Source: Nitrospirota bacterium
GTDB taxonomy: Bacteria; Nitrospinota; Nitrospinia; Nitrospinales; VA-1
NCBI GenBank assembly: GCA_003246675.1
Contig: QJZQ01000019.1
Coordinates: forward strand, 1-37,196
Direction of reading: 5' to 3'
DNA: 37,196 nt
Shown here: piece by piece, positions 4,581 through 23,164 of the stretch
Numbering within the stretch: position 1 is the stretch's first letter
Layout of the letters: the number at the start of each line of letters is the position of its first letter
The notes under the pieces: generated by a model
Database searches by the model: none
Told to the model about the DNA's origin: nothing
The model's input: the letters and a program-made list of their open reading frames with translations, nothing else
Made by a program: the position numbers and the translations under genes

Positions 4581-7500
4581 ATGTCGAAAATCCTTCCCCA
4601 AAGAGCGAGCGGAAATCTTAGGGAGCGAACCAACTTTTCAAGAATCCCGACAGTCAGTGAAATACCCAATTTAATCGAAATACAGGTTAAATCATTCGAA
4701 GCCTTTATCCAGTGGGCCACTGCTCCCAAAGAGCGCGAGGCCAAAGGTCTGGAGGAGGTTTTTCGTGATATTTTCCCCGTTTCCGACCTTAACATCAACG
4801 CCAGGATAGAATACGTTGGTTATGAGGTGGGTGTCTGGGATTGTGGGTGTGGAGAGTACAGGGAGCTTGGCGGGCCGGGCGTGGTCTGTGAGGTTTGCCA
4901 CCAGGAAGTTGCTTACAATGAAAAGCACAAGCTCAGCGAATGCCGCCAGAAGGGGCTGGTGTATGCCGACCCCATTAAAATCATGGTGCGCCTGGTTCTG
5001 TTCGACAAGGAGACCATCGACGTCACCCCCAAGTCTCTGAAGGATCTGCCGGGGAAATATATCGTCGAGGAAGTGAAGCATCCCGAGACCGGCAAGGCGT
5101 TCATTCCGGCCCGCACCGAAATCACCGAAGATATTATCGAGCGGCTGCAGGAAGGGAAAATTCCTCAAATCACCATCAACTCCGTCCGCGAGGTCAAGGA
5201 GCAAAAGATTTTCCTGGGCGAGATGCCCATGATGACCGGCACCGGCACGTTCATGATCAACGGCGTCGAGCGCGTGATCGTCAGCCAGATGCACCGGTCC
5301 CCCGGCGCATTTTTCTCGCACGACAAGGGAAAATCCCACATCAGCGGAAAAATTCTGTACTCCGCGCGGATCATTCCTGACCGTGGGTCCTGGGTCGATT
5401 TTGAGTTCGACATCAAGGATATCCTCTACGTCAAGATCGATCGCCGGAGAAAGCTGCCCGCCACCGTTCTTCTGCAGGCGTTTGGCATGGATATCCCATC
5501 CATCCTGGAAACGTTCTACTCGGTCGAGAAGGTCGCGTTCAAGGATGGCCGTTACCGCATGGACGCGAAGAGCCTGCTGGTTGGGTTCAAGGTTCTGGAG
5601 GATCTCCTCGACGCTAAATCCGATGACGTTGTGCTTAAAGCCGGTAAGAAAGTGACCCCGGTGGCCGCCAAGAAGATTGGCCGCCAAGCGCGCGATCAGC
5701 AAGTGGAGTTCGACCCCGAAGGCCTGATTGGCCGGTTCCTGTTCGACGAGCTTGTGGACCCGGAAACCGGTGAGGTGGTGTACGAATGCAACCAGCCCAT
5801 CACTCAGGAGACGCTGGCGTTCATCGACAAACGCAATATTCAGGAGTTCCGCATTCTTCATGTCGATGAAGAGGCGACCGACACCTGCATCCGCGATACC
5901 CTGGCGGCGGGAAAAATCACCACCCAGGAAGAAGCGATTCGCGAGATCTACAAGCGTCTCCGGCCGGGCGATCCGCCGACGCCGGACATCGCCAAGTCCC
6001 TGTTCTGGAACCTGTTCAAGAACCCGAAACGGTACAACCTGTCCGTGGTGGGGCGGATCAAGCTCAATGAAAAATTCGGGCTGGATGTCCCCCTGGACAA
6101 CCGCCTGCTCACGCTGGAAGACCTGCAGAAGGTCATGCTGTATCTCGTGGATCTCAGAAACGGCATCGGCACCATTGACGATATCGATCATTTGGGCAAC
6201 CGCCGCGTGCGGGCCGTGGGCGAGTCGCTGGAAAACCAGTTTCGCGTTGGGCTGGTGCGCATGGAACGCGCGATCATCGAGCGAATGTCGATTCAGGATG
6301 TCGATGTTTCCATGCCGCACGACCTGATCAACTCCAAGCCGGTGACGGCCGCGATCAAGGAATTTTTTGGCAGCAGCCAGCTTTCCCAGTTCATGGACCA
6401 GACCAACCCCCTCTCCGAGGTTACGCACAAGAGGCGGCTCAGCGCCCTTGGTCCGGGTGGTCTGACGAGGGAGCGGGCCGGGTTTGAGGTGCGCGACGTG
6501 CATCCCACCCATTACGGGCGAATTTGTCCCATCGAGACGCCGGAGGGTCCCAATATTGGCCTGATCGCTTCTCTTAGCACCTATGCCCGCGTCAATGAAT
6601 ACGGTTTCATCGAAACCCCGTACCGCAAAGTGGAAAAGGGGCACGCGATGGATGAGGTCGATTTTCATACTGCTCTCAGGGAAGATCAGTACGTCATCGC
6701 CCAGGCCAACGCCGCTCTGGACAAAAATAACAAGTTCGTCGATCAGATTTTATCCGCCCGCAAGGGTGGGGACTTCACCTTGTCGGCCTCGGACAAGATC
6801 GACTACATGGATGTTTCTCCCAAGCAGTTGATCAGCGTGGCGGCGTCCCTCGTTCCATTTCTGGAAAATGACGATGCCAACCGCGCTCTCATGGGATCGA
6901 ATATGCAGCGGCAGGCGGTTCCTCTGTTGCAGGCCGAGGCCCCCCTCGTGGGAACGGGCATGGAAGCGATCGTGGCGCATGATTCCGGCGCCGTGGTGGT
7001 GGCCGAGAACGACGGGGAAGTGATTTCCGCCGATGCGACGCGCATCGTGGTCAGGACGGAGCGCCAGAAAACCGGCCGAATTAAAACTCAGAGAAGCCGG
7101 TTGATGGATTCCAACGTCGATATCTATACCCTGTATAAATATCAGCGTTCAAACCAGAACACCTGCATCAATCAGCGGCCGCTGGTATCCACCGGCGCCA
7201 AGGTTAAAAAAGGCGATGTCCTCGCCGATGGCCCGTCCACCGACAACGGTGAGCTGGCGCTCGGCCGCAACGTGCTGGTCGCCTTCATGCCCTGGGACGG
7301 CTACAATTTCGAGGATGCCATCATCGTCAGCGAAAAACTGGTGAAGGAGGACGTCTACACCTCGATCCACATCGAGGAGTTCGAAGTCGAAGCGCGCGAT
7401 ACCAAGCAGGGCAAGGAAGAAATTACCCGCGACATCTCCAATGTTGGCGAAGAGGCCTTAAAGAACCTGGACGATAGCGGCATCATTCGCATCGGCGCCA

Positions 7501-8795
7501 CGGTGAAGCCCAACGACATCCTGGTGGGGAAGATCACCCCGAAAGGTGAAACCCAGCTCAGCCCCGAAGAAAAGCTTCTCAAGGCCATCTTCGGCGAAAA
7601 AGCGGGCGATGTCCGCGATACCTCGCTCAGGGTGCCGCCGGGGATTCAGGGCACCGTGATCGACGTCAAGGTGTTTTCGCGCAAAGGGGTGGACAAGGAC
7701 TCGCGCACCATCGCCATCGAGGAAGAGGAGATTGCGCGCGTTGAAAAGGACTATAACGACGAAATCAAGATCGTAAAGAGCGAGACGGATAAGCGAATTC
7801 GAAGCCTGCTCAAGGGCGGAGTGTTCGACAAGGCCGTCACCCTGGGCAAGAACAAATTCAAAAAGGGTGACCTCGTCAGTGAGGAGCTGCTTGATGAAAT
7901 CAGTTCGCGGGATCTGGCGAAGATTCCCGTAGCCGGCGTCGATGAAGAAGCTGTCAAGGCCCTGGAAGCCAGCTGCGCGGATCAGATCCAGATCCTCAAG
8001 TCCATGATGGATGACAAGATAACCCGCGTGCAGAAAGGGGATGACCTGTCCCCGGGCGTCATCAAGCTCGTGAAAGTTTTCATGGCGATGAAGCGCAAGC
8101 TTCAGGTGGGCGACAAAATGGCGGGTCGTCACGGCAACAAGGGCGTCGTATCCCGGATCGTTCCCGTGGAAGATCTGCCCTTCATGGAGGACGGCACTCC
8201 CATCGAGTTGATCCTCAACCCCCTGGGCGTTCCCTCGCGAATGAACGTGGGGCAGATACTGGAGACCAACCTGGGGATGGCCGCCAAGGTCACCGGCAGG
8301 CACATGGCCACCCCGGTGTTCGATGGCGCGAAGGAAGACGACATCCGTCGTCTGCTGGAGGAAAAGGGCTGCCCGCCCTCGGGTGAAGTGCCCCTGTACG
8401 ACGGCCGCACCGGCATCCGTTTTCGTCAGAAGGTCATGGTGGGTTATATCTACATGCTCAAACTGCACCACCTGGTCGACGACAAGATTCACGCACGTTC
8501 CACCGGCCCCTACTCGCTCGTTACCCAACAGCCGTTGGGCGGCAAGGCGCAGTTCGGGGGTCAGCGCCTGGGAGAAATGGAAGTCTGGGCGCTGGAAGCC
8601 TACGGAGCCGCTTACACCCTGCAGGAAATGCTGACCGTAAAGTCCGACGATGTCGAAGGCCGGAAGCGAATGTATGAAGCCATCGTCAAGGGCGATACCA
8701 ACCTGAACCCCAGCTTGCCCGAATCGTTCAACGTTCTGGTCAAAGAACTTCAGAGTCTTTGCCTCGACGTGGAATTGATAGAGTCAGGCCAATAA
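4581..8795 (+). CDS. rpoB: DNA-directed RNA polymerase subunit beta
   Basis: 1404 aa; with beta' it forms the catalytic core of RNA polymerase. The rifampicin pocket is intact and of sensitive type ([19 protein letters not shown]), followed by the conserved [18 protein letters not shown]; the C-terminal clamp segment has [21 protein letters not shown] long charged lineage insertion (about 1050-1130) is typical of Gram-negative beta. Unusual: residues 86-110 hold a four-cysteine motif, W-D-C-x-C-G ... C-E-x-C, absent from E. coli beta and closely like the RpoC zinc domain. ATG 4581 (MSKILPQ) is preferred to the track's TTG 4563, with AGG six bases upstream. Confidence 0.97.
4836..4910 (+). other. 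RpoC-like four-cysteine zinc motif inserted in RpoB
   Basis: Encodes RpoB residues W86 to V110, with C88, C90, C103 and C106. Compared with the RpoC zinc domain encoded at 9074-9148 (W67 to V91), the spacing is identical over 25 positions and 13 residues are the same, including all four cysteines, W, Y and GVVCE. Against E. coli beta, the stretch between the conserved YxxG and the EC-x-x-(K/R)G positions is about 28 residues longer. Zinc binding and descent from RpoC are inferences. Confidence 0.7.
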
Positions 8796-8875: not shown

Positions 8876-12961
<4,086 letters not shown>

Positions 12962-22461: not shown

Positions 22462-22826
22462 TCCAGTTAAGAACCGTAATGGAAGTGGCAGATAACAGTG
22501 GCGCCAAGGTCGTCCAGTGCATCAAGGTGCTCGGAGGCTCCAAGCGGCGCTACGCCCGGGTTGGCGATATCATCGTCGTGGCGGTCAAAGAGGTGGACCC
22601 GAACGGGAATTTCAAGAAGGGCGAGGTCAAGAAAGCCGTTGTCGTCCGCACGAAAAAGGAAATCCGCCGCTCAAACGGCAGTTATATTAAGTTCGACAGC
22701 AATGCCGCCGTATTGATTTCCGACAGTCGTGATCCGATTGGCACCCGCATATTCGGGCCCGTCGCGCGCGAACTCAGGGCGCGCCGGTTCATGAAGATTC
22801 TTTCCCTGGCCCCGGAGGTTCTGTGA
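22458..22826 (+). CDS. rplN: 50S ribosomal protein L14
   Basis: 122 aa; at the subunit interface. Starts [17 protein letters not shown] and ends [12 protein letters not shown], both typical. The four-base overlap with rpsQ and one-base overlap with rplX indicate tightly coupled translation. Confidence 0.97.
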
Positions 22827-23164
22827 TGGCAAAGACGAAAGCCCGGGTGGCGATTAAGAAAGACGATATCGTCCAGGTGACCGCTGGCCGGGAGAAGGGC
22901 AAAAAAGGCAAGATTCTGACCGTCCTGGTGGATGAAGGCCGGGTGAAGGTCGAGAAACTAAACATGTACAAGCGTCACATGAAAGGCGACGGCAAGACCC
23001 GCCAGGCCGGCATCATCGAGGCCGAGGGCAAGATCGCCATTTCCAACGTGCTGCTCGTATGCGACAAGTGCGGCAAGGGCGTCCGCATTAAACGGAAAAA
23101 GCTGGAAGACGGCAAGCGCGTTCGCGTCTGCGTGAAATGCGGCGAAGTGATGGATACAATCTGA
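22826..23164 (+). CDS. rplX: 50S ribosomal protein L24
   Basis: 112 aa; KOW-domain assembly initiator of the large subunit. [19 protein letters not shown] holds the KOW motif. The C-terminal part has two CxxC pairs (CDKCGKG and CVKCGEV), the zinc-ribbon-like form common in many bacteria. The track's GTG 22823 is skipped for ATG 22826, which overlaps the rplN stop as TGATG. Confidence 0.95.

What the first reader, a model, noticed from the sequence alone, without database searches (positions are those of the whole stretch)
4836..4910. RpoB carries an insertion that copies the RpoC zinc-binding motif
RpoB residues 86-110 read W-D-C-G-C-G-E-Y ... [11 protein letters not shown]. The beta' zinc domain in the neighbouring rpoC (residues 67-91, 9074-9148) reads W-E-C-N-C-G-K-Y ... 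[11 protein letters not shown]. Spacing is identical across 25 positions and 13 residues match, including all four cysteines. In E. coli beta the corresponding place has only seven residues between conserved flanks, against 35 here. The simplest reading is that a piece of the beta' zinc domain was copied into the beta protrusion, giving the enzyme an extra zinc site. I know of no described function for such a domain in beta; it could contact nucleic acid or a lineage-specific factor.
Basis: partly seen in the sequence, partly recalled or inferred. Interest (0 to 1): 0.78.

Follow-up and report, generated by a model that had tools for sequence, protein, structure and literature searches.

The report
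Second zinc ribbon in RNA polymerase beta
In Nitrospinota-group bacteria the beta subunit of RNA polymerase carries a small extra domain that is an old copy of the zinc-binding domain of its partner subunit beta-prime; the copy has lost the nucleic-acid-gripping surface, and several lineages have since lost the zinc-binding cysteines while keeping the domain.

Summary
RpoB (4581-8795) has a 35-residue stretch where E. coli beta has 7, with a CxC-x12-CxxC motif matching the neighbouring beta' zinc-binding domain at 13 of 25 positions. It is not a one-genome oddity. It is fixed in length across Nitrospinota and three further GTDB phylum-level groups, which form one clade in an RpoB tree built without the insert. 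It is absent from 11 control genomes of other phyla and from every listed match in a 195-genome neighbouring phylum. Similarity to the beta' domain far exceeds what four matched cysteines give (profile-profile E 1.2e-13), and beta' chains are all 60 listed PDB matches. A joint tree separates all beta inserts from all beta' domains at one branch: one old copying event. The basic loop of the beta' domain (charge about +5) became a conserved E-Y-x-x-L-G-G loop (about -1), so nucleic-acid contact is unlikely. The cysteines were lost about six times, always from four to one or none, while the loop stayed intact. Best reading: a structural zinc ribbon that presents a protein-docking surface on the beta protrusion. 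Zinc binding and a partner remain unproven.

The parts
4581..8795 (+). rpoB, RNA polymerase beta (1404 aa)
4818..4937 (+). Lineage-specific insert with flanks (residues 80-119); insert proper is about residues 85-119, between YEVG and EC
   Evidence: Alignment with 11 insert-less beta proteins
4836..4910 (+). Cys4 core [25 protein letters not shown], copy of the beta' zinc-binding domain (beta'-bD1)
4854..4874 (+). Codons of loop EYRELGG (residues 92-98), conserved also after cysteine loss; replaces the basic KYKRMKH loop of beta'
8876..12961 (+). rpoC, RNA polymerase beta', source subunit of the copied domain
9074..9148 (+). beta' zinc-binding domain core (residues 67-91)

Best explanation
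Once, in an ancestor of Nitrospinota and its sister groups, the small zinc-binding domain of beta' (beta'-bD1) was duplicated into the beta protrusion, between the strand ending in YEVG and the EC-helix, and then inherited vertically. There it folds as a compact zinc ribbon: four cysteines, one zinc, structural. It displays a new conserved loop (E-Y-x-x-L-G-G) on the protrusion. Having lost the basic residues that let the beta' domain hold RNA, it most likely serves as a protein docking or bracing surface on the protrusion, the region where Mfd docks in E. coli. Zinc only scaffolds the loop, so several lineages replaced the zinc knuckles with hydrogen-bonded turns (CxxC-G to D-x-x-T-G) without losing the domain. 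Shown: presence, distribution, homology to beta', single origin within P1-P4, loop change, concerted cysteine loss. Inferred: zinc binding, fold identity with the beta' domain, protein docking. Unknown: the partner.
For: Homology: 12.3 of 25 mean identity to beta' (range 6-17); hhalign 98.1%, E 1.2e-13; all 60 listed PDB matches are beta'/gamma chains. Single origin: joint tree split 100/100; P1-P4 one clade at 100 SH-aLRT in an RpoB tree without insert columns once one second-copy row is left out. Site: Cys counts among 86 P1-P4 inserts are 75 with four, 7 with none, 4 with one, none with two or three; six changes on the tree. Beta' keeps its four Cys in the 68 beta' sequences extracted, including the genomes that lost them in beta for which beta' was read. 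Loop: E6/L10/G11/G12 kept in 11 of 11 cysteine-less inserts; charge -1.09 against +4.97; beta' R77, L78 and K79, the positions changed here, contact putRNA in E. coli (PMC9378689). Mfd RID binds the beta protrusion (PMC7864632), and the genome encodes a CarD/TRCF-RID protein. AlphaFold2 gives the insert about 91 pLDDT in beta context.
Against: No experiment shows zinc. Foldseek on the isolated 40-residue model found nothing significant; beta' appears only at rank 6 with E 8.6. No partner is identified, and Mfd docking is widespread in bacteria, so it does not explain a lineage-specific domain. The loss of positive charge argues against nucleic-acid contact but does not exclude it.
Confidence: 0.6

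Rival explanations
1. The insert is an unrelated zinc ribbon that converged on the beta' motif; only the cysteine spacing is shared for structural reasons.
For: The P5 group (L079, G085) has a Cys4 insert at the same place with the same spacing but only 3 of 21 non-Cys identities to its own beta', which is chance level. The isolated fold found no significant structural match.
Against: For P1-P4, non-Cys identity beats nearly all shuffles, profile E is 1.2e-13, and no other zinc protein in the PDB outranks beta'.
Confidence: 0.1
2. The insert is a beta' copy that still binds nucleic acid, for example upstream DNA or the non-template strand near the protrusion.
For: The parent domain binds RNA at the exit channel (PMC9378689); the protrusion lies along the DNA path (general knowledge).
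Against: Net loop charge fell from about +5 to about -1, and the RNA-contacting R77 and K79 positions became E/G/D and G.
Confidence: 0.15
3. The insert is only a structural spacer that stabilises the protrusion, with no partner, persisting by drift or entrenchment.
For: Zinc was lost several times without loss of the domain. A second insertion later arose in the same domain.
Against: The loop E-Y-x-x-L-G-G is conserved across phylum-level groups and after cysteine loss, and no Nitrospinota-group beta examined had lost the insert, apart from a foreign-looking second copy in G009.
Confidence: 0.25

Closest known systems
Bacterial RNAP beta' zinc-binding domain (beta'-bD1 of Alvarez-Carreno et al. 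2024, PMC11515920; E. coli beta' C70/C72/C85/C88)
   Same: CxC-x12-CxxC spacing, W-E, G-x-[11 protein letters not shown]; significant profile homology
   Different: Sits in the beta protrusion; basic K-Y-K-R-M-K-H-K loop replaced by E-Y-x-x-L-G-G; cysteines repeatedly lost
Lineage-specific BEAN insertions in bacterial RNAP-beta (PMC11515920)
   Same: Clade-specific insertion domain in beta, vertically inherited, related to a domain of beta'
   Different: Different fold class and size (about 30 residues; unclassified insertions under 50 residues were left out of that study); different site; metal-type motif
C-terminal zinc site of archaeal/eukaryotic Rpb2 (from general knowledge)
   Same: A zinc site in the beta homologue
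   Different: At the other end of the protein, not related to beta'-bD1; not compared here
C+/C- ribosomal proteins (from general knowledge)
   Same: All-or-none loss of four zinc cysteines with fold retention
   Different: There as paralogue pairs tied to zinc supply; here a single-copy RNAP domain, with no test of zinc supply

Membership tests
beta' zinc-binding domain (beta'-bD1) | CxC-x12-CxxC cysteine spacing | tested here: met
   75 of 86 P1-P4 inserts; the other 11 have lost three or four Cys
beta' zinc-binding domain (beta'-bD1) | Sequence homology beyond the cysteines | tested here: met
   hhalign E 1.2e-13 against shuffled controls; PDB ranking; not met for P5
beta' zinc-binding domain (beta'-bD1) | Basic RNA-contacting loop | tested here: not met
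   Loop charge -1.09 against +4.97; R77/K79 positions replaced
beta' zinc-binding domain (beta'-bD1) | Location in beta', RNA exit side | tested here: not met
   Insert lies in beta; hence a derived copy, not a member in place
beta' zinc-binding domain (beta'-bD1) | Same three-dimensional fold | tested here: inconclusive
   AlphaFold2 about 91 pLDDT in context but Foldseek on 40 residues not significant
beta' zinc-binding domain (beta'-bD1) | Binds one zinc ion | not testable with these tools
   Indirect support only from concerted cysteine loss
BEAN insertion domain | CATH 3.90.105.10 fold, two bracket elements, at the published insertion sites of beta | tested here: not met
   The insert matches the beta' zinc domain, not a BEAN; it lies in the N-terminal protrusion (uD1). 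Site list from PMC11515920

The most novel reading that the evidence does not exclude
A domain was copied between the two catalytic subunits of RNA polymerase and repurposed into a clade-specific protein-docking platform on the protrusion, recognised by a so far unknown Nitrospinota transcription factor, with zinc serving only as replaceable scaffolding.
Probability: 0.35. Interest if true: 0.8.

Novelty: new variant of a known kind. Interest (0 to 1): 0.64.

Why it matters
RNA polymerase is one of the most studied enzymes, yet an inter-subunit transfer of the beta' zinc domain into beta was not found in the literature searched. It gives a clean natural experiment: about six parallel losses of a zinc site in a domain that is otherwise kept, separating the role of the metal from the role of the fold. 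It is also a shared derived marker uniting Nitrospinota with neighbouring candidate phyla, and a specific surface to fish for new transcription factors in marine nitrite oxidisers and relatives.

Tried and rejected
Foldseek of the 549-residue beta model listed only RNA polymerase entries, beta chains by their labels, and of the isolated insert nothing significant. Pfam has no model for the insert. Recent gene conversion between rpoB and rpoC was considered and rejected: the joint tree puts all inserts on one side of one branch. Chance pattern hits: most of the 63 stretches in the genome-contig scan are not RpoB. General loss of zinc sites was considered for the cysteine-less lineages and rejected for RNAP, because beta' keeps its four Cys. 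Published papers on RNAP insertions and on the Nitrospina gracilis genome do not mention the insert in the passages searched.

Full report
Observation. The window holds rpoB (4581-8795) and rpoC (8876-12961) in the usual rpl-rpo gene cluster. At 4836-4910 RpoB reads [25 protein letters not shown]; RpoC at 9074-9148 reads [25 protein letters not shown]. A search of the whole genome of the window with the RpoB N-terminus found, besides itself, only rpoC at E<=0.001. Searched against the PDB, beta chains align on both sides of the stretch and leave it out, whereas only beta' chains align to it.

Distribution. In the window's phylum (77 genomes held), 67 matched. Record titles of contigs with the same lengths name it Nitrospinae/Nitrospinota. 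Every Nitrospinota beta N-terminus read has the insert at identical length, apart from a second rpoB of one genome, G009. A DNA pattern scan of the named collection of 84,980 species genomes for CxC-x12-CxxC followed by the EC-helix and Met gave 63 stretches. Those that are RpoB come from Nitrospinota and from five further genomes not among those 77: L077, L079, L082, L089 and L114. Searches around them show four more phylum-level groups: P2 with 24 genomes, of which all but one matched and those read carry the insert; P3 with two genomes; P4 with one; P5 with four genomes held, in two of which the insert could be read. Their record titles say Nitrospinaceae, Nitrospinae/Nitrospinota, Tectomicrobia or just bacterium. 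The pattern required Met after the helix, so lineages with Leu or Val there, and bacteria at large, are not exhaustively covered. Eleven control genomes of other phyla with a readable rpoB match lack the insert; the twelfth gave only a weak match in the beta' motif.

One origin, old. A tree of RpoB with the insert and the second insertion removed puts P1-P4 in one clade (99, with one second-copy row from G009 nested inside; 100 when that row is left out). P5 sits on a long branch; grouping it with P1-P4 is neither shown nor rejected (p-AU 0.49). A joint tree of all four-Cys beta inserts and beta' domains splits them at a single branch with 100/100 support, so there has been no repeated copying or conversion. 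It has only 29 columns and cannot say which lineage's beta' was the donor. The direction beta' to beta follows from the wide presence of the beta' domain, seen here also in the control genomes without the insert.

Homology, not just cysteines. With the four Cys fixed, shuffled inserts reach the observed identity to their own beta' in 0-52 of 100,000 trials for P1-P4 examples, against 11,844 for P5. Profile comparison gives E 1.2e-13, score 51.6; the best of 30 column-shuffled controls scores 24.9. An HMM of inserts against all PDB sequences has 77 matches up to E 10; all 60 shown are beta' or gamma chains. The copied part matches the published insertional domain beta'-bD1 of about 27 residues (PMC11515920).

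What changed after copying. Shared: W, E, C-x-[14 protein letters not shown]. Changed: beta' K-Y-K-R-M-K-H-K became E-Y-K-x-L-G-G-P, net charge of the loop +4.97 to -1.09. In E. coli beta' R77, L78 and K79 contact putRNA (PMC9378689), and these are positions that changed. This argues that the copy is not a nucleic-acid-binding domain of the parental type.

Loss of the metal motif. Of 86 P1-P4 inserts, 75 have four Cys, 4 have one and 7 have none; none has two or three. On the tree this needs six changes, at least four forced by well supported branches. W0, E6, L10, G11, G12 and V15 are kept in 11 of 11 cysteine-less inserts, and the second knuckle turned into D/C-x-x-T/S/N-G. In the genomes concerned for which beta' was read, beta' keeps its four Cys. 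All-or-none loss is what one four-cysteine site predicts; survival of the loop shows that the loop, not the metal, is the constrained part.

Structure. AlphaFold2 of beta residues 15-563 with 60 homologues gives mean pLDDT 84 and about 91 over the insert. Isolated, the insert gives 80 and no significant Foldseek match; several of the weak matches are zinc-binding proteins by general knowledge, among them a beta' chain at rank 6.

Mechanism. The insert lies in the beta protrusion, upstream in sequence of the segment VREVKEQ, which aligns to the E. coli segment holding the Mfd-contacting residues (position from general knowledge). The protrusion is the dock of Mfd (PMC7864632), and the genome encodes one CarD/TRCF-RID protein in an 813-residue open frame. 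The most economical reading is a structural ribbon that presents a docking or bracing loop. The partner is unknown and this step is inference.

Novelty. Lineage-specific insertions in beta are a known kind (PMC11515920); that study set aside unclassified insertions under 50 residues and lists no insertion site in the N-terminal part of uD1. No paper found describes a beta' zinc domain in beta. Subscription literature could not be searched.

Noticed in passing
window 5016-5190 (RpoB residues about 146-203): A second insertion of about 47 residues in the same protrusion domain, resembling a BEAN-type segment of beta' (TIGR02386 match E 4.2e-6 at residues 154-205; PDB beta' 7ye1_D). Present only in the Nitrospinales and families f5-f7, so apparently younger than the zinc insert; the site is not among those listed in PMC11515920.
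   Followed up: partly
L044 / L241 (G009 contig C14, about 479500-487700): A second rpoBC without the insert in a Nitrospinota genome, on a 488 kb contig; its N-terminus looks proteobacterial. Contamination or a second, foreign copy.
   Followed up: no
L079 and L121 / G085: Small phylum-level group with a divergent Cys4 insert (YVCSCG...PCERCG) at the same beta site; independent gain or very diverged descendant.
   Followed up: partly
window 22823-23164: Ribosomal protein L24 with a CxxC...CxxC tail, CDKCGKGV...CVKCGE, as read from the sequence.
   Followed up: no
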